Of a stretch of DNA of 64,000 nt, positions 29,514 to 56,845 are shown piece by piece (within the stretch, counting starts at the first letter, position 1; each line of letters starts with the position of its first letter). This DNA is from Microbacterium sp. RU33B (GTDB lineage: Bacteria; Actinomycetota; Actinomycetes; Actinomycetales; Microbacteriaceae). The translations under genes and the position numbers were made by a program. The DNA lies in contig NZ_FTPO01000002.1 of assembly GCF_900155915.1 (NCBI RefSeq), positions 682,001 through 746,000 on the forward strand, read 5' to 3'. The notes beneath the pieces were generated by a model. That model did not search any database, was not told the DNA's origin, and worked only from the letters and a program-made list of their open reading frames with translations.

Positions 29514-29553
29514 CTCATTCGAGACTCCGCACGCTCGAAGGAGAACGCCAGAG

Positions 29554-34486: not shown

Positions 34487-34488
34487 GC

Positions 34489-36326: not shown

Positions 36327-36330
36327 CGGC

Positions 36331-37227: not shown

Positions 37228-38015
37228 CGGCCCTGCTCAGCATCCGCGACCTGACGATCACGGCGCGGGTGCGCGACGACGACCTCACGCTCCTCGAGAA
37301 CGTCGACCTCGAACTCGAGCGCGGAGAGGTGATCGGACTCGTCGGCGAGTCGGGGAGCGGGAAGACCACGCTCGCGCGCTCGGTCATCGGCCTCGTCGAG
37401 CGCAACGTCAGCGTCGCGGGCGGCGAGATCGCCCTGGCCGGCCGCACCATCGTGAGCACCGCACACGACGATCGCCGCCGCGTGCGCGGATCCGAGGTCG
37501 GGATGGTGTTCCAGGATGCCTCGCGCTCCCTGAACCCGCTGATGAAGGTCAAGGCGAATCTGGCCGAAGTGCTCCACCGGCACGAGCCCGGGATCTCGCA
37601 CGCCGAGGTTCTGCGCCGCTCCACCGAAGTGCTGCATCAGATGCGCATCGAGGATGCCACGCGCGTGCTCGACGCCTACCCGCATCAGCTGTCCGGCGGA
37701 CTCCGCCAGCGGGTCGCGATCGGCCTCGCCGTCGTGACCAAGCCCGCCCTCGTCATCGCCGACGAATGCACGACCGCCCTCGATGTCACGACGCAGGCGA
37801 AGGTGGTCGAGCTCTTCCGCTCGCTCGTGGACGAACTGGGCGTCGGGCTGGTCTTCGTGACCCACGACCTGATGCTGGCGAGCGACCTGTGCGACCGCAT
37901 CGCGGTCATGAGCAAGGGACGCATCGTCGAGGTGGGCACGGCGGAGGACGTGATGGACCGCCCGCAGGACGACTACACCCGCCGACTTCTCGCGGCGATC
38001 CCGAGCTGGACCTGA
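37224..38015 (+). CDS. Peptide/nickel-type ABC importer ATP-binding protein (OppD/DppD-like)
   Basis: A 263-residue ATPase. Walker A GESGSGKTT, Q-loop VFQDASRSLNP, signature LSGGLRQRVAIG, Walker B LVIADECTTALD (Cys in place of the usual Pro) and THDLMLA are present. The ATG at 37224 overlaps the permease stop. With the other four genes it completes a family-5 importer. The Cys-for-Pro change after the Walker B Glu is a small oddity whose effect is not known. Confidence 0.92.
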   Translation: MTALLSIRDLTITARVRDDDLTLLENVDLELERGEVIGLVGESGSGKTTLARSVIGLVERNVSVAGGEIALAGRTIVSTAHDDRRRVRGSEVGMVFQDASRSLNPLMKVKANLAEVLHRHEPGISHAEVLRRSTEVLHQMRIEDATRVLDAYPHQLSGGLRQRVAIGLAVVTKPALVIADECTTALDVTTQAKVVELFRSLVDELGVGLVFVTHDLMLASDLCDRIAVMSKGRIVEVGTAEDVMDRPQDDYTRRLLAAIPSWT

Positions 38016-40613: not shown

Positions 40614-41518
40614 CCGATCGAGTGAGCTTCGACGGCCGCGTCGCGATCGTCACGGGAGCGGGCGGGGGGATCGGGCGCGCGGAGGCCCTCACGCTGGCCG
40701 CGCACGGAGCGCGCGTGGTGGTCAACGACATCGGAGGCGACGTCACGGGTCGAGGAGGCTCGGGTGCGGCGCAGGCCGTCGTCGACGAGATCGTCGCCGC
40801 GGGCGGCGTTGCCGTCGCCTCCCGCGCGTCCGTCACCACGCCCGAGGGCGGTCGTGAGCTCGTCGACGCGGCGGTCGAGGCGTTCGGCGGCGTCGACGCC
40901 GTGATCCACAACGCCGGCATCCTCCGCGACCGCACGTTCGGAAAGCTCTCGGATGCCGACGTGGCCGACGTCATGGACGTCCACCTCCTCGGCGCGTTCA
41001 ACGTGCTGCGGCCGGCCTGGCCGCACCTCGCGGCCGGCGGCAGCGGCCGGATCGTCCTCACGAGCTCGTCGTCGGGTCTGCTCGGCAACTTCGGACAGTC
41101 GAACTACGGTGCCGCGAAGACCGGGCTCGTGGGGCTCATGAACGTGCTCGCTCTCGAGGGCGCGCGCAGCGGCATCCTGGTCAACACGATCGCGCCCACG
41201 GCGGCGACCCGCATGACCGACGGTCTGCTCGGCGAGCTCGCCGACCGCTTCGACCCGCGGCACGTCGCGTCGGTCGCGACGTTCCTGGCATCGTCGCAGT
41301 GCGCGCTCGACCGTCACATCCTCAGCGTCGGCGGAGGACGCGTCGCCCGCTTCTTCATCGGCGTCACGCCCGGGTGGTACGGCGGGGCGGATCCGGCGAC
41401 ACCCGACGACATTGTGGGCGCCCTCGACGAGATCGTGTCTCTGGACGACTTCATCGTGCCCGTCGGCGGCGCCGACGAGGTCGCCCTCATCCACCGCGTC
41501 ATCACCCAGGGGGAGTGA
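40610..41518 (+). CDS. SDR-family (3R)-hydroxyacyl-CoA dehydrogenase-like enzyme
   Basis: A 302-residue short-chain dehydrogenase. The cofactor motif is TGAGGGIGRAEA, the NAG motif VIHNAGI, and the catalytic Ser and Tyr-x3-Lys are in LTSSSSGLLGNFGQSNYGAAK. It resembles the dehydrogenase half of peroxisomal multifunctional enzyme 2 (17-beta-HSD4), including the VVNDIGGDVTGRGGS insert. The ~60-residue C-terminal extension is also like that group. It fits oxidation of 3-hydroxyacyl-CoA, directly before thiolytic cleavage. Overlaps the thiolase stop by 4 bp. Confidence 0.92.
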   Translation: MTDRVSFDGRVAIVTGAGGGIGRAEALTLAAHGARVVVNDIGGDVTGRGGSGAAQAVVDEIVAAGGVAVASRASVTTPEGGRELVDAAVEAFGGVDAVIHNAGILRDRTFGKLSDADVADVMDVHLLGAFNVLRPAWPHLAAGGSGRIVLTSSSSGLLGNFGQSNYGAAKTGLVGLMNVLALEGARSGILVNTIAPTAATRMTDGLLGELADRFDPRHVASVATFLASSQCALDRHILSVGGGRVARFFIGVTPGWYGGADPATPDDIVGALDEIVSLDDFIVPVGGADEVALIHRVITQGE

Positions 41519-41520
41519 GC

Positions 41521-42024
41521 ATGCCCGTCAGCGAAGTGCACCACGTCGCCGTCACGGTCTCGGATGTCGATCGTGCCGCCGACTTCTACGAGCAGGGGCT
41601 CGGATACCGAAAGACCCTGCGGACGGATGTCGGCGGTCCGGGCATCGAGGGTCCGCTCGGACTGCCGGAGGGCACGACGGGAAAGGTGCAGTACCTGCAG
41701 GGACCGAGTCAGATCGGCCAGCTCGAGCTCATCGAGTGGAACGGCACGAAGGTGCGCACCGCGACCGGCGGCCACCTCGAGCTCGGCACGTTCCTGCTGA
41801 GCTTCCAGGTGCCCGAAGCAGAAATGGACGAGCTCCACGATCGGCTGGCCGGTCTGGGCGCCGACTGCCTCGGGCGGCCGCAGCGCGTGCTGCTGGAGAA
41901 CTACGGCTACCTGACGGCCTTCGCGGCGCGCGATCTCGACGGCAATCTGCTCGAGTTCGTGGCGCTGCCGACCAAGGAGCAGATCCAGGCGTATCGCCGG
42001 GGTGAAGCCCGTGGCGACGAGTAA
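41521..42024 (+). CDS. VOC-family (glyoxalase-like) protein
   Basis: A 167-residue single-chain VOC protein with the module start EVHHVAVTVSDVDRAADFYEQGLGYRK (motif, ~4-30) and end DLDGNLLEFVALP. His and Glu at the expected first and last metal positions (HHVAV, LLEFV) suggest a metal site, unlike the two-domain VOC protein at 31221. Possible roles include epimerase (methylmalonyl-CoA epimerase fold) or C-C cleavage. The start is the ATG at 41521, 2 bp after the SDR stop. Its stop lies inside the next gene. Confidence 0.85.
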   Translation: MPVSEVHHVAVTVSDVDRAADFYEQGLGYRKTLRTDVGGPGIEGPLGLPEGTTGKVQYLQGPSQIGQLELIEWNGTKVRTATGGHLELGTFLLSFQVPEAEMDELHDRLAGLGADCLGRPQRVLLENYGYLTAFAARDLDGNLLEFVALPTKEQIQAYRRGEARGDE

Positions 42025-43528
42025 CTTCTCCGAGACCCTGCGGCGCCAGACGCTCCGGCGCGGCGACCGCGAGGCGCTCGTCGACGGCGATCGGCGATGG
42101 ACCTACGCCGAGCTCGACGCCGACGTCGACCGCCACGCGGCGGCGCTGCGCGCAGTCGGAGTCGAGGCGGACGCCCTCGTCGGGGTGCTCGGCCGCAATT
42201 CGGCGACGTTCGTCATCGAGCTGCTCGCGCTCGCCCGTCTCGGCGCGGTCTCGGTGCCTCTCAACTGGCGACTCCACGAGCAGGAGCAGGCTTACGTCGT
42301 CTCGCGCGCGGGCATCTCGGGCCTGCTGTACGACGACGAGTTCGCAGACATCGCGGCCTCGGTGGCCGCCGTGACCTCCGTGCGCCTGCTCGTCGCGCAC
42401 GGCCAGGAGCGCGTGCACGGCGGCTTCGTGCTCGCCGAGATGCTCGCGGAGGTTCCGCGAGGCATCCGGGTGCCCGACGTCGAGCGCGAGGCCGACGACC
42501 TGCACCGGCTCCTCTTCACGTCGGGCACGACGGCGCATCCCAAGGGCGTCATGCACACGTGCGGCAACATCGCGGCGAACCACGTCGGCCAGGTGCTCGA
42601 GCTCGAGCTCACGCAGGACGACCGCATCCTCGTCTCGGCGCCGCTCTTCCATGTGAGCGGGCTCGAGGCGCCCGGCCTCGCGACGTTCGTCGCCGGCGGG
42701 ACCCTCGTGCTCACGACGAGCTTCCAGCCCGCCGACATCGCGCGGATCGCCGAGAGCGAGCGCATCACGGGCATGGTGCTCGCCGCGCAGATCCTGTTCG
42801 GAATGCTCGACCTCGACCCCGCCCCCGACCTCTCGGCGCTGCGATACCTGCTGTTCGCCGGTGTCGCCCCCGCGGTGCGGCAGCGCGTCAAGGCCCTCCT
42901 GCCCCATGTGCGGCTCGTCGACACGTTCGGGATGACCGAGCTGTGCAACGGCGTGGCCTACCTCGACGCCGCGCACGAGCAGTCCAAGCTCGGCGCGCTC
43001 GGCGCCGCGTTCCCCGGGGTGCAGCTGCGGATCGTGGACGCCGACTTCCGCGAGGTCGGCCCCGACGTCGAGGGCGAGCTCGTCGTGCGCGGGGCGAAGG
43101 TGTCGCCGGGCTATTGGCGCGACGAGGAGGCGACGCGCCGGGCCTGGCGCGACGGCTGGTTCGTGACCGGCGACGTCGCCCGCATCGATGCGGACGGCTA
43201 CCTCTGGTTCGTCGACCGCCGCGCGAACCTCATCAAGTCGGGCGGCGAGAACATCGCCAGCGCCGAGGTCGAGCGGATCCTCGCCCAGCATCCCGGAGTC
43301 GCGGAGGTCGCCGTGATCGGCGTGCCCGACCCTCGGTGGGATGAAGTGCCGGAGGCGTTCATCGTCGCCCGCACCGAGCTCACCGTTGACGAGCTGCGAC
43401 GCCACTGCCTCGACCACCTCGCGAAGTTCAAGGTGCCGGCGCACTTCGCGTTCGTCGACTCCCTCCCGCGAAACGACTCCGGGAAGGTCCTCAAGAAGGC
43501 GCTGCGCGAACAGGAGCCGGTGCGATGA
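42002..43528 (+). CDS. Acyl-CoA synthetase (AMP-forming)
   Basis: A 508-residue ANL-superfamily ligase. The P-loop LLFTSGTTAHPKGVMHT, A5 motif DTFGMTEL, A7 TGDVARIDADGYLWFVDR and the catalytic Lys near the C-terminus (DSGKVLKKAL) are present. It activates a carboxylic acid to its CoA ester. The GTG at 42002 overlaps the VOC gene by 23 bp; an alternative GTG at 42011 would shorten it by three residues. Followed by a paralogous ligase with a 4-bp overlap. Confidence 0.93.
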   Translation: MKPVATSNFSETLRRQTLRRGDREALVDGDRRWTYAELDADVDRHAAALRAVGVEADALVGVLGRNSATFVIELLALARLGAVSVPLNWRLHEQEQAYVVSRAGISGLLYDDEFADIAASVAAVTSVRLLVAHGQERVHGGFVLAEMLAEVPRGIRVPDVEREADDLHRLLFTSGTTAHPKGVMHTCGNIAANHVGQVLELELTQDDRILVSAPLFHVSGLEAPGLATFVAGGTLVLTTSFQPADIARIAESERITGMVLAAQILFGMLDLDPAPDLSALRYLLFAGVAPAVRQRVKALLPHVRLVDTFGMTELCNGVAYLDAAHEQSKLGALGAAFPGVQLRIVDADFREVGPDVEGELVVRGAKVSPGYWRDEEATRRAWRDGWFVTGDVARIDADGYLWFVDRRANLIKSGGENIASAEVERILAQHPGVAEVAVIGVPDPRWDEVPEAFIVARTELTVDELRRHCLDHLAKFKVPAHFAFVDSLPRNDSGKVLKKALREQEPVR

Positions 43529-45069
43529 CGGCCAATCTCGCCCGGACCATCGATCTGCACGCCATCCGCTTCGCCGATCGGGCGGCGCTCGTCGCCGGCG
43601 ACCGCACGTGGACGTACCGCGAGCTCGCCCGCGACGTCGACGCGCTGGCCTCGGCGCTCGCCGACGACGGGATCGGAGCCGCTCAGCGCATCGCCGTCGT
43701 CGCCGACAACGTGCCCGAGTTCCTGATCCTCAATCTCGCGCTGAGCAAGCTCGGCGCCGTGTCGGTTCCGCTGAACTACCGGCTCACGGCGGCCGAGCTC
43801 CGCCACCTCCTGACGCACGCCCGCGTCGACGGGGTGGCGGTGTCGGCGCCGTACGCCGCCGTCGTGGGGGAGGCTCTGGAGCAGCTGGCGATCGACCGCC
43901 GGTACGCGCTCGAGGAGATCGGCGAGCCGTGGCAGTCGGTGCCGGCCCTCATCGCCTCGCACCGGGGTCGGGTCCAGCCGACCGCGTCCGTCGAGCCCGA
44001 CACGCTCCAGCGGATCATCTACACGTCGGGCACGACGAGTCTCCCCAAGGGCGTGCTGCTGACCCACGGCAACGTGAACGCCAACATGCACGCGCAGATC
44101 GTCGAGATGGGGCTGCGGCCGGGGGACAGCATCCTGAACTTCGCCCCGCTGTACCACGTGGGCGGCACCGACCTCCCCGGGTACGCCATCTGGCACGTGG
44201 GCGGCACGATGGTGCTCCTGCGCCGCGCCGACCCCGAAGGCATCGTGTCGGCCATCCTCGCCCACGGCGTGACCGGCATGGTGATCCCGGCGACGGTGCT
44301 CGACATGATCCGGCGGCTCGAGGCGAGCACGCGCCTGGCGGAGTCGCACGTGCGCTGGCTGCTCTTCTCGCAGGTGACGCCGGCGCTCTTCCGCACGGCC
44401 CGCGCGCTGTTCCCGAATGCGCGCCTCATCGAGGGCTACGGCCTGACCGAGACGTGCGGCGGACTCACCTACCTCGACGAGGCGCACATGGAGTCCAAGC
44501 AGGGGTCGGTCGGGCTGCCGCTGCCCTGGGTGGAGGTGCGGGTCGTCGACGCCGACGGTGCCGATGCTCCGACCGGCCAATCAGGGGAGATCGTGGCCCA
44601 GGGCCCCAAAGTCAGTCACGGCTACCTCGACGACCCCGAGGCGACCGCCCGCGCGTTCCGCAACGGCTGGTTCCACACGGGCGACGTGGGGTATCTCGAC
44701 GCCGACGGGTACCTGACCGTGCAGGACCGGCTGAAGGACATGATCCGCAGCGGGGCCGAGAACATCGCGAGCGCCGAGGTGGAGCACGTGCTCGCCGATC
44801 ATCCCGACGTGCTCGCCGTGGCCGTCGTGGGGGCGCCCGACCCGCAGTGGCAGGAGGTCCCCGTCGCCTTCGTGGTCGCGCGACCCGGCTTCGACCCCGC
44901 GTCGCTCGTGGAGTCCGCGGGCACGCGGCTCGCCCGCTTCAAGCTGCCCAAGGCGGTCTACGTCGTCGAGGAGTTCCCGACCAACCCCTCGGGCAAGGTC
45001 CTCAAGCGCGAGCTGCGGCTGCTGCGCGAAACCCTCGAGCCGGCGTGGGAGTACGTCCCGCGCGGCTGA
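43525..45069 (+). CDS. Acyl-CoA synthetase (AMP-forming)
   Basis: A 514-residue ligase with P-loop RIIYTSGTTSLPKGVLLTHGN, EGYGLTETCGG, HTGDVGYLDADGYLTVQDR and terminal NPSGKVLKREL. It is similar in layout to the preceding ligase but clearly diverged, so the two probably activate different intermediates. It is the last gene of the operon that starts with the ABC importer, and its stop lies only 11 bp from the convergent MBL gene. Confidence 0.93.
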   Translation: MTANLARTIDLHAIRFADRAALVAGDRTWTYRELARDVDALASALADDGIGAAQRIAVVADNVPEFLILNLALSKLGAVSVPLNYRLTAAELRHLLTHARVDGVAVSAPYAAVVGEALEQLAIDRRYALEEIGEPWQSVPALIASHRGRVQPTASVEPDTLQRIIYTSGTTSLPKGVLLTHGNVNANMHAQIVEMGLRPGDSILNFAPLYHVGGTDLPGYAIWHVGGTMVLLRRADPEGIVSAILAHGVTGMVIPATVLDMIRRLEASTRLAESHVRWLLFSQVTPALFRTARALFPNARLIEGYGLTETCGGLTYLDEAHMESKQGSVGLPLPWVEVRVVDADGADAPTGQSGEIVAQGPKVSHGYLDDPEATARAFRNGWFHTGDVGYLDADGYLTVQDRLKDMIRSGAENIASAEVEHVLADHPDVLAVAVVGAPDPQWQEVPVAFVVARPGFDPASLVESAGTRLARFKLPKAVYVVEEFPTNPSGKVLKRELRLLRETLEPAWEYVPRG

Positions 45070-45080: not shown

Positions 45081-46052
45081 TCAGCGATCGATGCTCTGGA
45101 GGAGCGCGAGCGTCTGCATGAGCGCGAAGCGCCGGGTTCCGACGCCCATCTCCGCCCACGGCTTCGCCCACGTCAGCTGCGGGGCAGCCTCCCAGGCCGT
45201 GGCCCCCGACGACGCGACGCGTGCGGCGTCGGCGAGCTCGCGGGAATGCTGGGCGATGAGCTCGGAGGCGCGCTCGGCCGGATCGAGGTAGGGGTACTGG
45301 TGGGCCGGGCAGGCGATCGCGGCGCCCAGGTCGCGGATGCGCGCGAGCGAGTCGAGCAGGTCGCGCACGGGGGCGTCGTCCGGCCGGCTCGGGAGCGTGA
45401 GCTGCACAGGTCCCTCCGGCATCATCGTGTCGCCGGTGAACACGACGTCGTGCACGGCGTACACGCGATGGCCCCATGTGTGGCCGGGGGTCCGCACCGC
45501 TCGGATGACCACGTCGCCGTACACGAGGTCCTCGTCGTCGTCGAGCACGAGGTCGGCGCGGAGCGACTCCGGATGCCGCGCGATCGTGAGCGCCGACCGG
45601 TACATGTCGTCGACGGTGGCCTCGGGCGCCCCGCTCAGCGCGAGCGCGCGCGAGAGCTGGTCGAGGAACCCCCCGCGCTCGGCGTGCTGGTGGGCGAAGT
45701 CGTCTTCGCGGTCGATCGCGATCGTCGCAGCGGAGACCTCGCGGATCCGCTCCGCCAGCCCCACGTGGTCGGGGTGGTTGTGGGTCAGCAGGACGGCGCG
45801 CACGGACTCGACCGGATGCCCGATCCCGTCGAGCCGCTCGACGAGCGCGTCCCAGCATCCGGAGGTGTCGTACGCCGCGTCGATCAGGACCGGTCCTACC
45901 GGCGTCTCCACGACGTGGATGGTCACGGAGCGGAGCGCGCTGTCGACCAGGGGGATCGGCAGCGACCACACGCCGTCGCGGATGCGCCGCACGGGCGGGA
46001 CCTCTTTCGAGCGATAGGCGAGGGCGAGATCGTCGTGCAGAGGGGTGGACAT
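45081..46052 (-). CDS. Metallo-beta-lactamase-fold hydrolase
   Basis: A 323-residue protein with the HxHxDH metal motif in LLTHNHPDHVGL. Further metal ligands are in RTPGHTWGHRVY and FTGDTMMP, and in CPAHQYPY. These indicate a binuclear Zn hydrolase of the glyoxalase II/lactonase class. A lactone or CoA-thioester substrate would fit the pathway, but is not shown. The ATG at 46052 has GGGAAG 7 nt upstream and is preferred; an ATG at 46067 is the alternative. Divergent from the ligase at 46120; operator D lies between. Confidence 0.88.
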   Translation of the reverse strand: MSTPLHDDLALAYRSKEVPPVRRIRDGVWSLPIPLVDSALRSVTIHVVETPVGPVLIDAAYDTSGCWDALVERLDGIGHPVESVRAVLLTHNHPDHVGLAERIREVSAATIAIDREDDFAHQHAERGGFLDQLSRALALSGAPEATVDDMYRSALTIARHPESLRADLVLDDDEDLVYGDVVIRAVRTPGHTWGHRVYAVHDVVFTGDTMMPEGPVQLTLPSRPDDAPVRDLLDSLARIRDLGAAIACPAHQYPYLDPAERASELIAQHSRELADAARVASSGATAWEAAPQLTWAKPWAEMGVGTRRFALMQTLALLQSIDR

Positions 46053-46083
46053 CGGTGCGCTTCCCATCTAGTTTGGGTACAAC

Positions 46084-46119: not shown

Positions 46120-47676
46120 ATGATTGACCACAAGACCGGGTTTCGGCTTTGGGCCGTCTCCGATCCCGATCAGTGCGCCATCGTGTCCGCGGACGACACG
46201 TCGTGCACGTACGGCGAGCTCTTCGCCGACGTCAACCGCATCTCGCACGGTCTCGCCGCGCGCGGAATCCGCCAGGGCGACACGATCGCCTGCGTCATGA
46301 CGAACAGCGTCGGGATGATCGCGCTGTACCTGGCCGTCATGCAGTCGGGCCTCTACCTCGTCACCCTCAACTACCACCTGACCGAGTCCGAGATCGCGTA
46401 CATCGTCGGCGACAGCGACGCGAAGCTCGTCGTGTGCTCCGAGCGGGTGGAGGGCACCGTCCGATCGGTCGCCGACTCGCTCGGGATCGACCTCGTCGTC
46501 GACCGCCCGTCGGCCTCGGGCGACGTGCTCCACGACCTCACGCACGGGATGCCGTCCCACGACGTCGCCGCCCCGACGGCCGGCTCGCTCATGATGTACA
46601 CGTCGGGCACCACGGGCAAGCCCAAGGGCGTGAAGCGCCCCCTGAGCGGGATGGACGCCGACACCGGCGCGCTCACCTATGTGTGGCTCTTCCAGGAGTT
46701 CGGCATGGAGCGCGAGGCCTTCTCGGCCTGGCTCGTCTCCGCCCCCCTGTACCACTCCGCGAACATCACCCCGGCGATGGGCGCCCTCCACGCGGGGGGA
46801 ACGCTCGTCCTCATGGACGGCTGGACGCCGGAGGGGTTCCTCCGCCGGGTGCAGGAGCGTCGGGTGAGCGGATCGAGCATGGTGCCCACGCACTTCTACC
46901 GGCTGCTCCAGCTCCCGGTCGAGGTGCGGGAGTCGTTCGACGTCTCGTCGCTGCGCTACATCATCCACGGCGCCGCCCCGTGCCCACCCGATGTGAAGCG
47001 GCGCATCCTCGAGTGGTTCGGTCCCGTGGTCTACGAGTACTACGGATCGACCGAGGTGGGCACAACGATCGCGCGCCCGCTGGAGTGGCTCGCCCATCCC
47101 GGCACGGTGGGGCGGCCCGCCTCCATCTCGACGCTCAAGATCCTCGACGCCGACGGCGAAGAGGTGCCCACCGGCGAGACGGGCATCGTCTACATGCGCC
47201 AGGGCACCGATCGCATGGAGTACCACAAGGACCCCACGAAGACCGATGGCTCGCGTCGGGGAGACCTGCTCACCGTGTGGGATGTCGGACACGTCGACGC
47301 CGACGGATTCCTCTACATCACCGGACGCGCGGCGGAACTCATCCTCGTGGGCGGCGTGAACGTCTACCCGGCCGAGATCGAGGCCGCGCTGCTGGAGCAT
47401 CCCGCGGTGGCCGACGTGGGCGTGCTCGGCGAGCGTCACGACGAGTACGGCGAGGTGCCCGTCGCGCACATCGCGCTGTCGGAGCGCGCGTCGTCGCCCG
47501 ACGTCGTGGCGGAGCTGCGCGCGCACGTGGAGGCGCGGCTGGCCAAGCCCAAGAGGCCCGTGCACTACGTCATCCACGAATCCCTGCCGCGCGACCCGAA
47601 CGGCAAGCTCTACAAGACCAAGCTCGCCGGCACCGAGACCGCGCAGACCTCAGGAGGCGCCCATGGACTTCGATGA
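46120..47676 (+). CDS. Acyl-CoA synthetase (AMP-forming)
   Basis: A 518-residue ANL ligase: P-loop LMMYTSGTTGKPKGVKRPL, EYYGSTEVG, VWDVGHVDADGFLYITGR and C-terminal DPNGKLYKTKL. The N-terminal half resembles FadD-type ligases found with paired acyl-CoA dehydrogenases in steroid and side-chain catabolism. It is the first gene after operator D and overlaps the dehydrogenase gene by 14 bp. The substrate is probably a cyclic or branched acid; inferred. Confidence 0.93.
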   Translation: MIDHKTGFRLWAVSDPDQCAIVSADDTSCTYGELFADVNRISHGLAARGIRQGDTIACVMTNSVGMIALYLAVMQSGLYLVTLNYHLTESEIAYIVGDSDAKLVVCSERVEGTVRSVADSLGIDLVVDRPSASGDVLHDLTHGMPSHDVAAPTAGSLMMYTSGTTGKPKGVKRPLSGMDADTGALTYVWLFQEFGMEREAFSAWLVSAPLYHSANITPAMGALHAGGTLVLMDGWTPEGFLRRVQERRVSGSSMVPTHFYRLLQLPVEVRESFDVSSLRYIIHGAAPCPPDVKRRILEWFGPVVYEYYGSTEVGTTIARPLEWLAHPGTVGRPASISTLKILDADGEEVPTGETGIVYMRQGTDRMEYHKDPTKTDGSRRGDLLTVWDVGHVDADGFLYITGRAAELILVGGVNVYPAEIEAALLEHPAVADVGVLGERHDEYGEVPVAHIALSERASSPDVVAELRAHVEARLAKPKRPVHYVIHESLPRDPNGKLYKTKLAGTETAQTSGGAHGLR

Positions 47677-48814
47677 CAGCCCCGACGACAAGGCCTTCCG
47701 GCGCGAGGTCGGCGCGTGGCTCGACACCGCGCTCGCCGACGTCCCCGATCAGGAGGAGCTCGCCCACTCCGAGCGCGAACACTGGTCGCGCGTCTGGCAG
47801 GAGCGCCTGTGCGAGGGGTCGTGGGCCGGACTCTCGTGGCCGGTCGAGCACGGCGGTCGAGGGATGGATGCGCTCGCCCAGGCGATCTTCAACGAGGAGG
47901 CCGCCGTCCGCGGCGCTCCCTACCCTCTGAACGGCGTCGGCATGATGCTCGCCGGACCCACCATCATCGCGCACGGTGACGACGCCCAGAAGGCGCGGTA
48001 CCTCCCGGGAATCCTGCAGGGGTCGACCTACTGGTGCCAGGGATTCAGCGAGCCCGGATCGGGCTCCGATCTCGCGAGCCTGCGGACCGCGGCCGTGAAG
48101 GTCGACGGCGGGTGGGTCATCAACGGCTCCAAGATCTGGACCTCCAACGCGCACAACGCGAGCATGTGCCTGCTTCTCGCCCGCACCGATGCGACCGCCG
48201 ACAAGCACGCCGGCATCTCGTACTTCCTCGCGCCGATGGATCGCTTCACCGTGCGGCCGCTCGTCATGATCAACGGCGACACCGAGTTCAACGAGATGTT
48301 CCTCGACGACGTCTTCGTCCCCGATGAGGACGTCCTCGGCGGCGTCGGCAACGGGTGGAAGGTCGCTCTCACGACGCTCGCCTTCGAGCGCGGCTCGATG
48401 GCGCTCAACCTGTGGGTCTGGGCACGCCAGGCCGTCGACCGCTTGATCGACATCGCCGTGGAGCGCGGGATGGCCGACGACGAGGCCTTCCTCGACGCCG
48501 TCGGGGCGCTCGACTGCGATGCGGAGGCCGTGCGGATCGGCTCGATGCGGATGGTCGCCGAGAGTCGCAGCGGCGGAGTCCCGGGGCCTGAGACGTCGGC
48601 GCTGAAGAGTCTGTGGGCGGGTGTCGTGCAGAACGCGAACCGGCTCGCGGTGCAGATCGACGACGGCGGCGGCGTTCTGCTGGACGGCGACGGGGCGGGC
48701 CCGCGCATGCGGCGCTACCTGCGCGCCCGCGCCCACACGATCGAAGGCGGCTCGGAAGAGGTCCAGAAGTCCATCCTCGCGGAGAGGGTGCTCGGGCTGC
48801 CCCGCTCGCGCTAG
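47663..48814 (+). CDS. Acyl-CoA dehydrogenase, catalytic subunit of a probable heteromer
   Basis: A 383-residue flavoprotein dehydrogenase. The FAD/substrate segment WCQGFSEPGSGSDLASL and a KIWTSNAH strand are typical. The C-terminal THTIEGGSEEVQ-like segment (HTIEGGSEEVQKSI) supplies the candidate catalytic Glu (YEGT position). It is directly followed by a second, shorter dehydrogenase that lacks this residue. Such adjacent pairs form alpha2beta2 enzymes in actinobacterial sterol degradation (ChsE1-ChsE2 type). Starts within the ligase gene end. Confidence 0.92.
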   Translation: MDFDDSPDDKAFRREVGAWLDTALADVPDQEELAHSEREHWSRVWQERLCEGSWAGLSWPVEHGGRGMDALAQAIFNEEAAVRGAPYPLNGVGMMLAGPTIIAHGDDAQKARYLPGILQGSTYWCQGFSEPGSGSDLASLRTAAVKVDGGWVINGSKIWTSNAHNASMCLLLARTDATADKHAGISYFLAPMDRFTVRPLVMINGDTEFNEMFLDDVFVPDEDVLGGVGNGWKVALTTLAFERGSMALNLWVWARQAVDRLIDIAVERGMADDEAFLDAVGALDCDAEAVRIGSMRMVAESRSGGVPGPETSALKSLWAGVVQNANRLAVQIDDGGGVLLDGDGAGPRMRRYLRARAHTIEGGSEEVQKSILAERVLGLPRSR

Positions 48815-48823: not shown

Positions 48824-49816
48824 ATGCACGCGACATTCACAGAAGAGCAGCGCGAGGTCGAGCAGGCCGTGCGCGACATCGCAGGCGGCGAGAACGGCGC
48901 GGCGCGGGCCGCCCTGGACGCCCCGTGGTCACCCCCCGCCATGGATGCCGAGCTGTTCGGCGGTTTCGGCGTGCTCGGCGTGCCCGAGTCGATCGGAGGC
49001 GTCGGCTCCGACCTTGTCGATCTGCTCGTCGCGGTCGAGGTTCTCGGCGAGACGCTCGCGCCCAGCCGCTTCCCGTGGCATGCGGCCGCGGTGCAGCTCC
49101 TCTCGGGCGGCCCGGTCGTCGACGACGCGATCCTGGGCGGCGAGGTCGTGCTCGCGCCGGCCGTGGACGCGCGGCCCGGGTGGACCGGCACGGGGATCGC
49201 GCGCAGTCTCGTCCCCTATGCGGCGCACGCGGATGCCTTCGCGGTCGTCGACGGCGATCGCGTGTGGTCCGCATCGGCGGTCGCCGTGCGCGAGCGCGAG
49301 TCGTTCGACCCCTCCGTCCCGCTCGCCGACGTGGAGTTCGCCGAGGCGGGGGCCGATCCGCGTCCGCTCGCGCGTGGTCTCGAGCGCGCCACGCTCGTCG
49401 TGGCGGCCCAGCTGTGCGGTGTGGCGCAGGGCGCGATCGATCTCGCGGCCGGCCAGGCGCGCACCCGTCAGCAGTTCGGCAAGGCGATCGGCTCGTTCCA
49501 GGGCGTCGCCTTCCAGCTCGCCGAGGCCGTGACCGCGCGGAAGGCGGCCTGGGACCTCACGATCTACGCGGCCTGGGCGGTGGAGAACGATCGCGACGAT
49601 GCGACGTCGCACGTGCACGCCGCAAAGGCCGCCGCAGGGAAGGCCGCGGTCTTCGCCGCCGAACGCTGCATCCAGGTGCACGGCGGCATGGGGATCACGA
49701 TGGCCGCGGATCCGCACCTCTACCTTCGTCGCGCCTTCGTGCTCGACGCCATGCTCGGCCGGGGCTCCGTGCATCGGCGAGAGGTCGGGCGGCTGCGCGT
49801 GGCGGCACGCGCGTGA
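48824..49816 (+). CDS. Acyl-CoA dehydrogenase-like partner subunit
   Basis: A 330-residue member of the same family, about 50 residues shorter than usual. The middle beta-domain is contracted (around residues 105-165) and the C-terminus ends LDAMLGRGSVHRREVG without the usual catalytic Glu. The FAD-binding RTRQQFGKAIGSFQGV and QVHGGMGITMAADPHLYLRR are intact. It is likely the second subunit of a heterotetramer with the 47663-48814 product, which would leave one active site per pair. RBS: AGGAGG 8 nt before the ATG. Confidence 0.9.
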   Translation: MHATFTEEQREVEQAVRDIAGGENGAARAALDAPWSPPAMDAELFGGFGVLGVPESIGGVGSDLVDLLVAVEVLGETLAPSRFPWHAAAVQLLSGGPVVDDAILGGEVVLAPAVDARPGWTGTGIARSLVPYAAHADAFAVVDGDRVWSASAVAVRERESFDPSVPLADVEFAEAGADPRPLARGLERATLVVAAQLCGVAQGAIDLAAGQARTRQQFGKAIGSFQGVAFQLAEAVTARKAAWDLTIYAAWAVENDRDDATSHVHAAKAAAGKAAVFAAERCIQVHGGMGITMAADPHLYLRRAFVLDAMLGRGSVHRREVGRLRVAARA

Positions 49817-50984: not shown

Positions 50985-51985
50985 AGATCAGCTGCTTCCT
51001 GAGCGCCCAGTTCGAGCCGGGCGCGTCGGCCGTCGCCGGTGTCGACCAGGTTCTCGCTCAGGCGACAGCGGCAGAGGACGCGGGGTTCCACGCCGTCTAC
51101 CTCGGTCATCATTACCTGGCCAAGTCCGCCTTCGTCCAGCCGGTCCCGCTCGCGGGATATCTCGCCGCCGCGACGTCGCGCGTGCGCATCGGCTTCGGCG
51201 TGCTCCTCGCTCCGCTTCTCAACCCGATCGCGCTCGCCGAAGACCTCGCCTCGCTCGACGTGCTCTCCGGTGGGCGACTCACCGTGGGCATGGGCGCCGG
51301 GTACCGCAAGCGCGAGACCGAGGCGTTCGGCGTCGCCTGGGACGACCGGCTCACGCGCCTGCGCGAGTACGTTCCGCTTCTGCGCGCGCTGTGGCGCGGG
51401 GAGGAGCTCGACCTCGAGGGCACGTGGGGGAGCGCGCCGCGCGCCTCGCTCGCCCTCCGCCCCGTGCAGCCCGGCGGCCCGCCCATCTGGATCGGAGCGT
51501 TCGCCGAGCCCGCGATCCGTCGCGCCGCGCGACTGGATGCGCCGTGGCTCATCGGTCCCAAGGGCACCGAGGACGAACTCGCCCGACTGCTCGGCATCTA
51601 CCGCGGAGTGCTCGAGTCGCGCGGCGCTTCCCTCGAGCGGGAGTACCCCCTGAGCCGCGAGGGATTCGTCGCCGACTCGCGGGCGGCGGCGTTCGACAGG
51701 GTGCGCCCCCACCTCGAGCGGCAGTACGCGGGATACAAGTCGTGGGACGACGCGCAGAAGATCGATGTCGAGCGCTATCTCGCCGAGGACTGCCTCGTCG
51801 GAACCCCCGAGGAGATCGTCGCGAAGCTGCGGCGCTGGGAGGACGTCCTCGGCATCACCGAAGTCACGCTCCGGCTCCAGTTCGTCGGCGCGAGCCACGA
51901 CGAGACCATGGACCAGATCCGTCGTTTCGGCGCCGAGGTCATCCCGCGCGTGGAAGCGCCCCGTGAGAGCACGGTCGTGCGATGA
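50981..51985 (+). CDS. LLM-class flavin- or F420-dependent oxidoreductase
   Basis: A 334-residue LLM protein (VKISCFLSAQFEPGASAVAG start; GGRLTVGMGAGYRKRETEAFG; GGPPIWIGAFAEPAIRRAARL). It begins at GTG 50981, overlapping the previous stop (GTGA), and overlaps the CoA-ligase gene by 4 bp. I cannot separate FMN from F420 use from sequence. It differs clearly from its LLM neighbours, so it may carry out another step or bind a different substrate. Confidence 0.88.
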   Translation: MKISCFLSAQFEPGASAVAGVDQVLAQATAAEDAGFHAVYLGHHYLAKSAFVQPVPLAGYLAAATSRVRIGFGVLLAPLLNPIALAEDLASLDVLSGGRLTVGMGAGYRKRETEAFGVAWDDRLTRLREYVPLLRALWRGEELDLEGTWGSAPRASLALRPVQPGGPPIWIGAFAEPAIRRAARLDAPWLIGPKGTEDELARLLGIYRGVLESRGASLEREYPLSREGFVADSRAAAFDRVRPHLERQYAGYKSWDDAQKIDVERYLAEDCLVGTPEEIVAKLRRWEDVLGITEVTLRLQFVGASHDETMDQIRRFGAEVIPRVEAPRESTVVR

Positions 51986-53535
51986 CCGGCGCGTCGAACC
52001 TCGCGACCATCATCGAGGCGCGGGCAGCGGAGCGCGGCGACGCCCCCGGACTCTTCGATGAGAACGGGCGCAGCTGGACGTTCGCGCAGATCGATCTCCT
52101 CGCCGGCGGTGTGGCCGAGTCGCTGCGCGCGAAGGGCGTCGGCGCGGGCGACCGCATCGCGTTCTACCTGACCAACGGCCCGGACGTCGTGTTCTTCCTC
52201 TTCGGCGCGTGGAAGATCGGCGCCATCCCGGTCACGATCAGCAGCCTCTACAACGCGTCGGAGCTCGCGGATGCCGTGCACAAGACGTCGCCGCGGATGC
52301 TCCTCGTCGACGCCCGCGGTGCGGAGGCGGCCCGCTCGGTCGGCGCGGACACCGCCCTCCCGATCCTCTCGATCGATGCCTCTGTCGCCGGAGTCGAGAC
52401 CCTCGCCTGGGGGCAGGAGGCGCGCGTCTCCGGGCCCGCCGTCGCCGACGAGGCCGAGGCCTGCATCCTCTTCACCGGCGGGACGACGGGTCGGCCGAAG
52501 GCCGTCAGCGTCACGCACGGCGGAACCTTCGGCTCCCTCGCGCGTCTCGCGCAGGCCTCCTCGCGTTCGGCCGAGCAGGGGACGGCGGCGCCGGATGCCG
52601 CCCCCAACCTCATCGCTCTCCCGCTGTTCCACTCCGGCGGGCAGCATGCCCTGCTCTTCGCGTTCTACGTCGGCCGCCCCGCGGTCGTCTGGGAGCGTTT
52701 CGGCGTGGACCGCCTCGCCGCCCTCATGGAGCGCTTCCGCTTCGACAACTTCTTCCTCCTGCCCACGATGGTGTTCGACATCGTGCACGCCGAGCGCGAG
52801 CTGCCTTTCGACGATGTGAAGTCGGTGCTCGTCGCCGGGCAGGCCATCTCGTGGACGCTGCGGCGCGAGTTCGAGGAGCGATACCGCACCCCGATCCTGG
52901 TGAACTACGGCTCGACCGAGTCCGGCCACATCGCGGGCTGGACGGGCCGAGACATGAAGGCCGGCCTCTGGAAGCCGGGGTCGGCCGGACGCGTCTACGA
53001 CGGCGTCGAGCTCGAGGTGCGCGCCGACGACGGCTCCGTCGTCGCCGACGGAGGAGAGGGCGAGATCGTCGTGCGCTCCGAGCTCACGCGCGGCTACGTC
53101 GACGACGCCGAGGCGTCGGCCGAGCTCATCCGCGACGGCTGGGTGCACACGGGCGACGTCGGCCACGTCGACGAGGACGGCGTGCTCTGGCTGTCGGGCC
53201 GCAAGCGCGACATGATCAAGTGCGGCGGATTCCAGGTGTGGCCCGAGGAGATCGAGGACGTGCTGCGGGAGCATCCCGCCGTCGTCGACGCGCGGGTGCT
53301 CGGAGTGCCCGACGACCGTCTCGGTGAGATCCCGGTGGCCGTGATCGTGCGCTCGCCGGAGGGGGCCTCCCGGCCCGATGACGACGTGCGGGCCGAGCTC
53401 GTCGCGTTCTCCCGCGAGCGGCTCGCGCACTTCAAGACTCCGCGGCGGGTCGAGTTCGTCGACGAACTGGAGCGGAGCGAGGCCGGCAAGGTCAAGCGCG
53501 TCGCGATCGCCGGACTGAGCGGGGGAGACGCATGA
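51982..53535 (+). CDS. Acyl-CoA synthetase (AMP-forming)
   Basis: A 517-residue ANL ligase. The P-loop reads CILFTGGTTGRPKAVSVTHGG (Gly in place of the usual Ser after Thr, and Ala in place of Gly after Lys), NYGSTESGHIAGW, HTGDVGHVDEDGVLWLSGR, and a C-terminal EAGKVKRVAI with the catalytic Lys. It is the fourth CoA ligase of the cluster. Embedded between LLM genes, it may activate an acid formed after ring cleavage by those enzymes. ATGA overlaps tie it to both neighbours. Confidence 0.92.
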   Translation: MTGASNLATIIEARAAERGDAPGLFDENGRSWTFAQIDLLAGGVAESLRAKGVGAGDRIAFYLTNGPDVVFFLFGAWKIGAIPVTISSLYNASELADAVHKTSPRMLLVDARGAEAARSVGADTALPILSIDASVAGVETLAWGQEARVSGPAVADEAEACILFTGGTTGRPKAVSVTHGGTFGSLARLAQASSRSAEQGTAAPDAAPNLIALPLFHSGGQHALLFAFYVGRPAVVWERFGVDRLAALMERFRFDNFFLLPTMVFDIVHAERELPFDDVKSVLVAGQAISWTLRREFEERYRTPILVNYGSTESGHIAGWTGRDMKAGLWKPGSAGRVYDGVELEVRADDGSVVADGGEGEIVVRSELTRGYVDDAEASAELIRDGWVHTGDVGHVDEDGVLWLSGRKRDMIKCGGFQVWPEEIEDVLREHPAVVDARVLGVPDDRLGEIPVAVIVRSPEGASRPDDDVRAELVAFSRERLAHFKTPRRVEFVDELERSEAGKVKRVAIAGLSGGDA

Positions 53536-54518
53536 AGTTCGGGATCATGGCGTCGCACCAGTATCCGCACGACGACGACCTCAGGACGCGACTGGACGAG
53601 CTGTTCGGCACGGTCGAGCTCGCGGCCGAACTCGGCTACGACTCGGTCTGGACGATCAACCACTTCCAGTCCAACCTCGCCACCCCCCAGCCCATCTCCA
53701 TGACGGCGAGCCTGCTCGCCCGCTCGGGCGACATGACGGTGGGCACCGGCATCCTGCTGATGCCGATGTTCCACCCCGTGCACATCGCGGAGGAGTTCGC
53801 GACGCTCGACCACCTCTCCCACGGGCGTGTCGTGCTCGGCGTGGGAGCCGGCTATCGCGACAACGAGTTCGCGGCGTTCGGCATCGACCCGGCGACCCGC
53901 TTCCGGCGGCTCGACGAGAGCGTGCGCGTCATCCGTGCGCTGTGGTCGGGCGATCCGGTCACCTTCCACGGCCGGCACGTGTCGCTCGACGACGCGTCGA
54001 TCGGCATCCGTCCGCTCACGCCCGGAGGTCCGCCCATCTGGATCGGCGCGGGCGGGCGCAAGGCGGTGGAGCGGGCCGCGAGGCTCGGCGACGCCTGGTA
54101 CGCGCCGGGCAACTCGCCCAACCCGCGGTACCTCCGCGAGCACACGCAGGTGTACGACGACGCGCTCGTCGCGGCCGGCAAAGACCCCGCGGCCGTTGAG
54201 CGGCCCGTCGGGCTCGAGCTGTACTGCGCCCCGACCACGGAGCGCGCGATCGAAGAGGCCCTTCCGTACGCCCGCCGGGAGTACTCGACGTATGCCGAGT
54301 ACCCGGCGCTGCGGTGGCAGCGCGATCGCTTCGACGAGCTCGTGGCCAACACGCTGCTGCTCGGATCGCCCGCTGCGCTCATCGAGCGCATCGAGGCGCT
54401 CCGCGCTCTGGGATTCACCCACGTCATCTTCCGGCCGGGATGGCTGGGGATGCCCGTCGAGAAGGTGCGCGACTCGCTGCGCCTGTTCGCCACAGAGGTC
54501 TTCCCGGCATTCCGGTGA
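53532..54518 (+). CDS. LLM-class flavin- or F420-dependent oxidoreductase
   Basis: A 328-residue LLM protein that begins MKFGIMASHQYPHDDDL and contains LAAELGYDSVWTINHFQSN, GVGAGYRDNEFAAFGID and GGPPIWIGAGGRKAVERAARLGDAW. Its N-terminus is close to that of the 55536 product (KFGI..HQY..DDDL), so the two are paralogs of a subfamily. It overlaps the ligase stop by 4 bp. Substrate and cofactor are unassigned. Confidence 0.9.
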   Translation: MKFGIMASHQYPHDDDLRTRLDELFGTVELAAELGYDSVWTINHFQSNLATPQPISMTASLLARSGDMTVGTGILLMPMFHPVHIAEEFATLDHLSHGRVVLGVGAGYRDNEFAAFGIDPATRFRRLDESVRVIRALWSGDPVTFHGRHVSLDDASIGIRPLTPGGPPIWIGAGGRKAVERAARLGDAWYAPGNSPNPRYLREHTQVYDDALVAAGKDPAAVERPVGLELYCAPTTERAIEEALPYARREYSTYAEYPALRWQRDRFDELVANTLLLGSPAALIERIEALRALGFTHVIFRPGWLGMPVEKVRDSLRLFATEVFPAFR

Positions 54519-54558: not shown

Positions 54559-55539
54559 GTGAAGAAGTCCGAAGCAGATCTGCTCGAACACCAGTGGGAC
54601 GTCGAGAACATGGAGACCGATCCCGAGGTGCTCGCGCGCTACGTGCGCTATCACGTCGACGAGGAGCGCGCCGTCGCGACGATCACGTTCGACCGGCCCG
54701 ACCGGCTGAACGCGATCCCCGTCGCCGCCTTCGAGCGGGTCGGAGATCTCGTGCGCGAGGCTGAGACCGACGACCGTGTCAAGGTCATCGTCTTCACCGG
54801 CGAAGGCGACCACTTCGGCACCGGCGCCGACGCGGCAGAGCTCGGGCACTACATCGGCTACCGCAACGGCACCGACAAGGAGTCCCGCCGCCGGCCGTCG
54901 CAGCGCCAGCGCATCCTCGCCGACCGCAATGTGCTGAGCTCGGGGTTCACGCGCCCCATCATCGAGTCGCTCAAGGCGACGATCTGCCAGGTGCAGGGGT
55001 ACTGCTACGGCGGGCACTTCCAGATCGCCCTGTCGGCCGACATCGTGATCGCGACCCCCGACGCCAAGTTCACCCATCCCGCGTTCCGCTACCTCGGCCC
55101 GGCGCCGCAGGACATGTACCACTGGATCGAGAAGGTCGGCCTGACGACGATGAAGGACGTCATGCTGACGATGCGGGCCATCGGGGCCGAGGAGGGCGAG
55201 CGCAAGGGGCTCGTCACCAAGGTCGTCGAGCGCGATGAGCTCGAGAAGTGGGTCGCCGACTACGCGGCGGCGATCGCGGTCATGCCGCTGGACTCGCTCA
55301 TGATGGGCAAGTCGATGATGCAGGTGCTCATGGAGGCCCGCGGCAAGGGCCTCGGCGCCATGACCGGATGGGTCGGCCACGGGTGGGCGACGAACGTGTC
55401 GTTCGAGGAGGGCGACTGGAACTTCCTCAAGGAGCGTCGCGAGAAGGGCATCGGCCAGGCCCTCGCCGATCGCGACCGCCTCGTGGCGCCCTACTTCCGG
55501 CTCAGCGACTCCCGCTCGCGCGAGGATGCCGAGGGGTGA
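54559..55539 (+). CDS. Crotonase-superfamily protein lacking both hydratase glutamates
   Basis: A 326-residue crotonase with a ~40-residue N-terminal extension. Oxyanion-hole segments are visible (FTGEGDHFGTGADAAELG; VQGYCYGGHFQIALSADIV). The first hydratase Glu is Gln (GGHFQ), and the second is Ala (THPAFRYLGPAP), so it is not an ordinary enoyl-CoA hydratase. A C-C hydrolase acting on a cyclic beta-diketone, as in 6-oxocamphor hydrolase, or a CoA-ester ring hydrolase is possible; this is inference. The GTG at 54559 has GAGGA upstream. The stop overlaps the next LLM gene. Confidence 0.87.
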   Translation: MKKSEADLLEHQWDVENMETDPEVLARYVRYHVDEERAVATITFDRPDRLNAIPVAAFERVGDLVREAETDDRVKVIVFTGEGDHFGTGADAAELGHYIGYRNGTDKESRRRPSQRQRILADRNVLSSGFTRPIIESLKATICQVQGYCYGGHFQIALSADIVIATPDAKFTHPAFRYLGPAPQDMYHWIEKVGLTTMKDVMLTMRAIGAEEGERKGLVTKVVERDELEKWVADYAAAIAVMPLDSLMMGKSMMQVLMEARGKGLGAMTGWVGHGWATNVSFEEGDWNFLKERREKGIGQALADRDRLVAPYFRLSDSRSREDAEG

Positions 55540-56519
55540 AGTTCGGCATCCTCCTCGACCACCAGTACGCGCGGGACGACGATCTCGGCCGACGCTCGGG
55601 CGAACTGGTGGAGTTCGTCCAGCACGTGCGGGACCTGGGATTCGACTCGCTCTTCGGCATCCACCACTACCTGTCGTCGCTGCGCACGCACCAGCCGCTG
55701 CCTTTGCTGTCGCGCCTCATCGACCACTCCGGAGACATGTCGCTGGGCACGGGCATCCTGATCCTCCCGCTCGGGCACCCCGTCAGCTGGGCGGAGGAGA
55801 TCGCGACGATCGACCAGATGTCGGGCGGGCGGTTCATCCTCGGCATCGGGTCGGGGTATCGCGACGACGAGTTCTCCTCGTTCGGCGTGGATCGCCGCAC
55901 GCGCGTCTCGCGCATGAACGAGTCGCTCGAGGTGATGCAGAAGCTGTGGACCGGAGAGCCGGTCGTGCACCACGGCCGCCACTTCACGCTCGACGGCGTG
56001 CGCAGCAGCATGCTGCCCGTGAACCCCGGAGGGCCCGAGGTGTGGGTGGGGGCGAACGGTCCCGTCGGCATCACGCGGATCGCACGGCAGGGTCTCGCCT
56101 GGCTCGCGCCGTCGAACGTGCGCCGCAACTGGGCGGTCGGCAACCTCGCCGATTACCGCGCCGAGCGGACTGCGGCGGGGTTCGACGATGCCGGTGCCAC
56201 CTTCCCGATCCACCGCGACCTGTGCGTCGCCGACGACTTCGACGAGGCGTGGTCGATCGCGGGCGAAGGCGTCGCGCGGTCGTACGGGGAGTACGTGCAG
56301 TACGGGATGGACTACTTCGAGACGCAGTGGGAGGGGATCAAGCACAAGGCCCTGTTCTTCGGGTCGCCCGACGACATCGCCGCGAAGGTCAAGGACTTCT
56401 CGGATGCCGGGTACAACCACTTCGTCTTCCGGATGCAGTGGCTCGGCCTGCCGATCGAGGAGTCGATGCGGATCGCCGAGCGGTTCGCGCGAGAGGTCAT
56501 GCCGAGGTTCCGCACATGA
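55536..56519 (+). CDS. LLM-class flavin- or F420-dependent oxidoreductase
   Basis: A 327-residue LLM protein (VKFGILLDHQYARDDDL; LGFDSLFGIHHYLSSL; GIGSGYRDDEFSSFGVD; GGPEVWVGANGPVGITRIA). It is paralogous to the 53532 product and flanks the odd crotonase with it. The GTG start at 55536 lies in the crotonase stop (GTGA). Two such paralogs could act on enantiomers or successive ketones, as diketocamphane monooxygenases do; this is only an analogy. Confidence 0.9.
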   Translation: MKFGILLDHQYARDDDLGRRSGELVEFVQHVRDLGFDSLFGIHHYLSSLRTHQPLPLLSRLIDHSGDMSLGTGILILPLGHPVSWAEEIATIDQMSGGRFILGIGSGYRDDEFSSFGVDRRTRVSRMNESLEVMQKLWTGEPVVHHGRHFTLDGVRSSMLPVNPGGPEVWVGANGPVGITRIARQGLAWLAPSNVRRNWAVGNLADYRAERTAAGFDDAGATFPIHRDLCVADDFDEAWSIAGEGVARSYGEYVQYGMDYFETQWEGIKHKALFFGSPDDIAAKVKDFSDAGYNHFVFRMQWLGLPIEESMRIAERFAREVMPRFRT

Positions 56520-56845
56520 AGATCGGACACATCATCGTCCCCGCCGGCGACCTCGATACGCAGGTCGCCTTCTACACCGCGCTCGGTCTCACGCTGCGGT
56601 TCCGCGACGGCGACCGGTACGCCGCTCTCACCGACGGCACCACCACGCTCGCCCTCGCCGATGCGTCGCAGCAGCCCGTGCCGGGCGCGGTCGTGGTGAG
56701 CATCGCCGTCGACGACCTGGACGGGTTCCTCTCCGGCTTCGACGGCGAGGCCGGCCCGGTCGTGGAGGGCCCGCACGAGCGGACCGTCCTCGTGCGCGAT
56801 GCGGCGGGCAACGCCGTCGTCGTGTACGCGAAGAAATCGGTCTAG
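56516..56845 (+). CDS. Small VOC-family protein
   Basis: A 109-residue single VOC module: MKIGHIIVPAGDLDTQVAFYTALGL at the start and AAGNAVVVYAKK at the end. The terminal metal Glu of active VOC enzymes is replaced by Val/Tyr (VVVYA), so a binding or accessory role is more likely than metal catalysis. The ATG at 56516 overlaps the LLM stop. It is the last gene of the operator-E operon; its stop lies 8 bp from the convergent response regulator gene. Confidence 0.85.
   Translation: MKIGHIIVPAGDLDTQVAFYTALGLTLRFRDGDRYAALTDGTTTLALADASQQPVPGAVVVSIAVDDLDGFLSGFDGEAGPVVEGPHERTVLVRDAAGNAVVVYAKKSV

What the first reader, a model, noticed from the sequence alone, without database searches (positions are those of the whole stretch)
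54559..55539. Crotonase-fold protein missing both hydratase glutamates between two paralogous LLM genes
The positions equal to Glu144 and Glu164 of rat enoyl-CoA hydratase are Gln (GGHFQ) and Ala (THPAF). The gene is flanked by the LLM paralogs at 53532 and 55536. 6-oxocamphor hydrolase is a crotonase that cleaves a C-C bond of a cyclic diketone, so a ring-opening hydrolase is an attractive reading.
Basis: partly seen in the sequence, partly recalled or inferred. Interest (0 to 1): 0.6.

Follow-up and report, generated by a model that had tools for sequence, protein, structure and literature searches.

The report
Glutamate-less crotonase in conserved catabolic cassette
The gene encodes an enzyme of the crotonase family that has lost the usual acidic catalytic residues and carries two rare conserved histidines instead; it is the best-conserved gene of a roughly 27-kb transferable gene cassette, shared by distant soil actinobacteria, that appears to break down a still unknown ring-shaped compound.

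Summary
In detail: 54559-55539 (+, GTG start, 326 aa) is a crotonase-fold protein with Gln155 and Ala175 at rat Glu144/Glu164, between two LLM paralogs (40% identical to each other). The cue itself is weak. Of 36 distinct crotonases from two other actinobacteria, 21 lack both Glu, and so does the host's own MenB. What is unusual is that the protein also lacks the third common acid (rat position 172, Ala182) and carries His153 and His173 at rat 142/162. His occurs at neither position in the 36 controls, but at both in all 23 orthologs and in a 30-39% identical mycobacterial subfamily. His153 aligns with 6-oxocamphor hydrolase (OCH) His122, but the OCH/ABDH catalytic set (His45, His145, Asp154, Glu244) is absent, so this is not an OCH-type enzyme. 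The gene is the most conserved member (82-93% identity) of a cassette found sporadically in Micromonospora, Dactylosporangium, Nocardioides, Actinomadura and Conexibacter, and on a Streptomyces plasmid. The cassette holds an ABC importer, 4 CoA ligases, an ACAD pair, 4 LLMs, thiolase/HMGS-like proteins, SDR, VOC and flavin reductase; fgd or npdG (F420) genes adjoin it in several hosts. Most likely it is a CoA-dependent, non-hydratase enolate enzyme. Hydrolytic C-C cleavage is plausible but unproven.

The parts
54559..55539 (+). crotonase-fold protein, 326 aa; His153, Gln155, His173, Ala175, Ala182, Asp185 and His188 mark the altered active-site region
54997..55023 (+). GYCYGGHFQ segment (residues 147-155): oxyanion-hole Gly152, His153 (rat 142 = OCH His122), Gln155 (rat Glu144)
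55069..55092 (+). FTHPAFRY segment (residues 171-178): His173 (rat 162), Ala175 (rat Glu164)
53532..54518 (+). LLM oxidoreductase (upstream flanking paralog)
   Evidence: PF00296 225 bits, TIGR03619 168.6 bits (above cut-off)
55536..56519 (+). LLM oxidoreductase (downstream flanking paralog), GTGA overlap with the crotonase stop
   Evidence: PF00296; 40.2% identical to 53532
56516..56845 (+). small VOC (glyoxalase-like) protein, last cassette gene
   Evidence: syntenic
51982..53535 (+). AMP-forming CoA ligase
   Evidence: PF00501
50981..51985 (+). LLM oxidoreductase
   Evidence: PF00296
49893..50984 (+). LLM monooxygenase, nearest solved relative 7bip (143 bits)
48824..49816 (+). acyl-CoA dehydrogenase, second subunit type, best NCBIfam match IpdE2 (below cut-off)
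47663..48814 (+). acyl-CoA dehydrogenase; best solved matches 4x28, 6wy9, 6wy8
46120..47676 (+). AMP-forming CoA ligase
45081..46067 (-). MBL-fold hydrolase
43525..45069 (+). AMP-forming CoA ligase
42002..43528 (+). AMP-forming CoA ligase
41518..42024 (+). VOC protein (start approximate)
   Evidence: in the same place as the VOC gene of the Streptomyces plasmid cassette
40610..41518 (+). SDR oxidoreductase
39414..40613 (+). thiolase-like protein (NF004810, above cut-off)
38035..39414 (+). HMG-CoA-synthase-like protein with a C-terminal zinc ribbon/OB (DUF35-type) end
32894..38015 (+). ABC importer: family-5 solute-binding protein 32894-34486, ATPase 34489-35331, permeases ending at 36326 and 37227, ATPase ending at 38015
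32033..32776 (-). second crotonase of the cassette
31221..32036 (-). two-domain VOC protein (ends approximate)
30709..31224 (-). flavin reductase (65% identical to the annotated plasmid gene)
30046..30684 (+). TetR regulator
29476..30042 (+). MaoC-type dehydratase (64% identical to the plasmid gene)
28416..29453 (+). [quoted passage not shown]

Best explanation
It is a divergent, probably CoA-dependent crotonase that is not an ordinary enoyl-CoA hydratase. It serves as one fixed step in a transferable catabolic cassette that imports a compound, activates it to CoA thioesters, and degrades it with a paired acyl-CoA dehydrogenase, LLM oxidoreductases and thiolase-type enzymes. SHOWN: the sequence changes, their invariance, the cassette and its sporadic distribution. 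INFERRED: the acyl-CoA oxyanion is held by the usual backbone hole (rat Ala98/Gly141 positions = Ala90/Gly152). His173, on the strand position two before the lost Glu164, acts as acid/base, possibly with Asp185. His153, at the OCH His122 position, binds a second carbonyl of the substrate. Most likely reaction, a guess from context: water-dependent C-C cleavage (retro-Claisen type) of a beta-oxo or vinylogous beta-oxo cyclic acyl-CoA formed by the LLM and dehydrogenase steps, as EchA20 and BadI do in other pathways.
For: Rat Glu144, Glu164 and the third acid position 172 are Gln155, Ala175 and Ala182; Ala98, Gly141, Asp150 and Lys241 of the reported ECH signature are kept. His153 and His173 are among 55 positions invariant across 23 orthologs plus 15 mycobacterial-type homologs. 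His is absent at both positions in 36 control crotonases. The third related subfamily, which keeps Glu144, has neither His. His153 aligns with OCH His122 in three MAFFT modes and in hhalign. Best fold and sequence matches are CoA crotonases. Context: CoA ligases, ACAD pair and LLMs in 20 of 21 loci, and the whole cassette on a plasmid. The crotonase is the most conserved of the 11 genes compared in every locus. Mycobacterial homologs sit next to a CoA-transferase-like gene. EchA20 sets a precedent for ring opening by a CoA crotonase (PMC5380842).
Against: No substrate, product or characterised close homolog was found. The AF2 model is weak overall (pLDDT 67.6) and uncertain in the loop 177-184 and the C-terminus, and its coordinates could not be inspected, so the side-chain geometry of His153/His173 is untested. 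EchA20 is reported to cluster with MenB, and the BadI model scores on the host MenB, whereas the query lies outside the host MenB's clade and has no MenB/BadI model in its best 25. Five of 36 controls also lack all three acids, so such loss is not unique.
Confidence: 0.4

Rival explanations
1. It is an unconventional enoyl-CoA hydratase or double-bond isomerase in which His replaces Glu, acting on a bulky cyclic enoyl-CoA made by the ACAD pair.
For: An ACAD pair lies in the same operon and the fold is that of CoA crotonases. Many crotonases without the Glu pair work with another acid: 11 of 36 controls have an acid at 172 alone.
Against: Asp172 is missing too (Ala182). The cassette has another crotonase (32033-32776) that keeps Glu at the 164 position and a MaoC-type dehydratase, either of which could do an ordinary hydration.
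Confidence: 0.3
2. It does other enolate chemistry on a CoA thioester: decarboxylation, retro-aldol or elimination, or thioester hydrolysis.
For: The superfamily covers hydrolysis, isomerisation, dehalogenation and decarboxylation (PMC3660561), and none of the three usual acids is present.
Against: No sequence family of these types ranks above the generic PRK08272/PRK06127/PRK08290 models.
Confidence: 0.17
3. It is a CoA-independent beta-diketone hydrolase of the 6-oxocamphor hydrolase/ABDH type.
For: His153 is in the column of OCH His122 and the equivalent ABDH His; LLM enzymes can act as Baeyer-Villiger enzymes (shown for progesterone, PMC12239570).
Against: OCH His45, His145, Asp154 and Glu244 have no counterparts. 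OCH/ABDH are not among the best fold or profile matches. The operon is rich in CoA enzymes.
Confidence: 0.07
4. It is a catalytically inert partner or scaffold of the neighbouring LLMs or ACADs.
For: It is nearly always adjacent to the LLM pair, overlaps the second LLM gene in the window, and is the most conserved gene.
Against: The altered polar residues are themselves invariant, which suggests a working site; in Patulibacter (L022) the gene occurs without the two flanking LLMs.
Confidence: 0.06

Closest known systems
PRK08272-type crotonases (NCBIfam NF006128, PRK08290, PRK06127); solved 3njb, 3ome
   Same: Best profile and PDB matches; 3ome and 3njb also show no Glu at the two positions in the printed alignments
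   Different: Below the curated cut-off (142.5 against 257 bits); 3ome and 3njb show neither His at these positions; function of those structures not established here
Mycobacterial-type GYCYGWHFY/F-G-H-P-[AS]-FRY subfamily (L038-L047, L050-L053, L055)
   Same: Shares His153, His173, FRY and other invariant positions, 55 in all
   Different: 30-39% identical; Tyr at 144 and Trp at 141; set in other clusters with P450, amidohydrolase-like, M24-like and CoA-transferase-like genes
EchA20 (HIEC-CoA hydrolase) and BadI, CoA-dependent ring-opening crotonases
   Same: Superfamily, CoA-linked ring cleavage as a plausible job, similar setting of CoA ligase/ACAD/thiolase genes
   Different: EchA20 clusters with MenB (PMC5380842); the query does not
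6-oxocamphor hydrolase (1o8u) and Anabaena beta-diketone hydrolase (2j5g/2j5s)
   Same: Crotonase fold; His at the same column two before the rat Glu144 position
   Different: They keep Glu at 144 and have the His45/His145/Asp154/Glu244 set; the query has none of these
Rat enoyl-CoA hydratase
   Same: Fold; Ala98, Gly141, Asp150, Lys241
   Different: Both catalytic Glu replaced; Arg178 to His188

Membership tests
Enoyl-CoA hydratase (ECH) | Glu144 and Glu164 (general base and acid) | tested here: not met
   Gln155 and Ala175, invariant in 23 orthologs
Enoyl-CoA hydratase (ECH) | Hydratase activity | not testable with these tools
   needs an assay
Crotonase superfamily (PF00378) | Family profile and fold | tested here: met
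   95 bits against a cut-off of 27; Foldseek prob 1.00 to many crotonases
Isomerase/dehalogenase-type crotonases | Asp at rat position 172 (role from my own knowledge) | tested here: not met
   Ala182; 11 of 36 controls have an acid at 172 alone
6-oxocamphor hydrolase / ABDH (CoA-independent beta-diketone hydrolases) | Catalytic His45, His145, Asp154, Glu244 (ABDH H43, H144, D153, E243) | tested here: not met
   Phe58, Phe176, Pro183 or gap, Gln300 in three alignments (ABDH residues)
6-oxocamphor hydrolase / ABDH (CoA-independent beta-diketone hydrolases) | His122 | tested here: met
   His153 in three MAFFT modes and hhalign
6-oxocamphor hydrolase / ABDH (CoA-independent beta-diketone hydrolases) | Activity without CoA on cyclic diketones | not testable with these tools
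   needs an assay
MenB/BadI/EchA20 group | Membership by sequence clade | tested here: not met
   host MenB (L006) lies in another clade (support 0.996); no MenB or BadI model among the best 25; EchA20 itself was not placed on the tree
CoA-dependent crotonase | CoA thioester as substrate | tested here: inconclusive
   Operon and homolog contexts hold CoA ligases or CoA-transferase-like genes; binding not tested

The most novel reading that the evidence does not exclude
A crotonase subfamily that has swapped the acidic pair for a His pair and performs hydrolytic ring opening of a CoA-bound cyclic ketone, at the heart of an undescribed, horizontally spread LLM/F420-linked catabolic pathway for a polycyclic natural compound.
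Probability: 0.22. Interest if true: 0.65.

Novelty: new variant of a known kind. Interest (0 to 1): 0.42.

Why it matters
The gene marks a well-bounded, transferable catabolic cassette of unknown substrate, conserved at high identity across distant actinobacterial genera. Its crotonase has an active site that standard annotation ('enoyl-CoA hydratase') probably misnames. Finding the substrate would add a pathway and test whether a His pair can replace the glutamates in crotonase chemistry.

Tried and rejected
6-oxocamphor hydrolase membership was tested with the solved sequence and rejected: only His122 of the residues compared is shared. The idea that missing Glu is itself remarkable was rejected with a control sample. 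The idea that F420 biosynthesis came with the cassette was rejected: 54 of 59 genomes of the genus have a match to the F420-ligase family, many of them strong and full length, while only the host has the crotonase. A viral-contig scan for more distant relatives found none. Literature searches found no paper describing this cassette, and a parallel with the npd picrate pathway could not be checked in the held library. The AF2 model was too uncertain at the active-site loop for geometry.

Full report
OBSERVATION. The gene at 54559-55539 is real, 326 aa, GTG start. It matches PF00378 with 95 bits; the best NCBIfam model is PRK08272 (142.5 bits, below its cut-off of 257). Alignment with rat enoyl-CoA hydratase puts Gln155 on Glu144 and Ala175 on Glu164. 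The flanking LLM genes are paralogs, 40.2% identical to each other. The crotonase stop and the next LLM start overlap (GTGA, 55536-55539).

IS IT MORE THAN CHANCE? The missing glutamates are not rare. Among 36 distinct crotonases taken from two other actinobacterial genomes, 21 lack both Glu and 8 have both. This sample consists of the best Pfam matches and their neighbours, so if anything it leans towards canonical enzymes. In the host genome 4 of 9 crotonases lack both. One of these is MenB, confirmed by NF006186, which carries Ser/Asp.

WHAT IS UNUSUAL. The query also lacks the third common acid, at rat 172 (Ala182). Only 5 of 36 controls lack all three, and none has His at rat 142 or 162. 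The query has both, His153 and His173. They are invariant in 23 orthologs and in 15 mycobacterial-type homologs of 30-39% identity, whose motif is GYCYGWHFY / FGHP[AS]FRY with Tyr at 144. A third related subfamily keeps Glu144, lacks Glu164 and has neither His. This looks like a swap of acid for His, but it may be one evolutionary event: grouping of the two His subfamilies has weak support (0.31). Position 172 was read from pairwise alignments and is less certain than 144/164.

COMPARISON WITH 6-OXOCAMPHOR HYDROLASE. In three MAFFT modes, and in hhalign (probability 96.4), OCH His122 aligns with His153. OCH His45, Glu124, His145, Asp154 and Glu244 align with Phe58, Gln155, Phe176, Pro183 or a gap, and Gln300 (Gln300 lies in a poorly aligned end). 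The choice of OCH residues is from my own knowledge; a published analysis names D153, H144, E243 and H43 as the known catalytic residues of ABDH (PMC3584854), and these correspond to the OCH residues that are absent here. So membership fails, while one residue is shared.

THE CASSETTE. In 20 of 21 orthologous loci the LLM-crotonase-LLM order is kept, and in 19 the full order: MBL hydrolase, CoA ligase, two acyl-CoA dehydrogenases, two LLMs, CoA ligase, LLM, crotonase, LLM, VOC; the Conexibacter locus is a variant. Hosts are Micromonospora, Dactylosporangium, Virgisporangium, Nocardioides, Actinomadura, Thermomonospora and Conexibacter; the Patulibacter copy has different neighbours. A 149.5-kb linear Streptomyces cathayae plasmid carries the entire unit, from a MaoC gene through TetR, flavin reductase, VOC, second crotonase, ABC importer, HMGS-like, thiolase-like, SDR and CoA ligases to the final VOC, with IS elements nearby. 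The same unit lies in the window at about 29.5-56.8 kb. The crotonase is the most conserved of the 11 genes compared in every locus (median 89.5%, next 83.8%). Only 1 of 59 genomes of the host genus (the host) and 2 of 396 genomes of the phylum (host included) have an ortholog at this level; the next matches fall to 39% or less. This points to horizontal spread.

COFACTOR. A flavin reductase lies in the cassette. [quoted passage not shown] F420 biosynthesis is general in the genus. The LLMs may therefore include both FMNH2 monooxygenases and F420H2 reductases; this was not resolved.

PATHWAY. The first acyl-CoA dehydrogenase matches solved chains 4x28 and 6wy8/6wy9 best; from my own knowledge these are heteromeric steroid enzymes. 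The second matches IpdE2 best, below its cut-off. With the thiolase- and HMGS-like proteins this suggests a polycyclic or terpenoid-like substrate. That is inference.

MECHANISM. Kept features (Ala90, Gly152, Asp161, Lys251 = rat 98, 141, 150, 241) fit a CoA-type oxyanion site (signature). I propose His173 as acid/base and His153 as ligand of a second carbonyl, with Asp185 as a possible partner; all unproven. EchA20 shows that CoA crotonases open rings (PMC5380842), but EchA20 clusters with MenB and the query does not. The AF2 model supports the fold but is too weak at the site for geometry.

VERDICT. Observation confirmed; OCH-type assignment rejected; ring-opening reading open; the real find is a conserved, mobile, uncharacterised catabolic cassette with a glutamate-less, His-bearing crotonase.

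Noticed in passing
window 29476-56845; L073/L076 (NZ_CP121683): A roughly 27-kb catabolic cassette shared with distant actinobacteria and present whole on a Streptomyces plasmid with IS elements nearby; substrate unknown.
   Followed up: partly
window 28416-29453; L010-L014, L028, L073: F420-reducing genes adjoin the cassette: fgd in the window, npdG in seven other loci.
   Followed up: partly
L064-L070, L072, L074: Mycobacterial-type relatives of the crotonase often sit in another recurring cluster with P450, amidohydrolase-like, two M24/Xaa-Pro-peptidase-like genes and a long CoA-transferase-like gene, also of unknown function.
   Followed up: no
window 38035-40613: HMG-CoA-synthase-like protein with a DUF35-type end followed by a thiolase related to acetoacetyl-CoA thiolase 6esq and PhlC chains; may run in the cleaving direction.
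   Followed up: no
window 24456-28070: Methylcitrate-cycle genes (PrpD, PrpC) lie just upstream of fgd and the cassette, which would suit a substrate that yields propionyl-CoA.
   Followed up: no
window 32033-32776: A second crotonase in the cassette has Gly at 144 and Glu at 164.
   Followed up: partly
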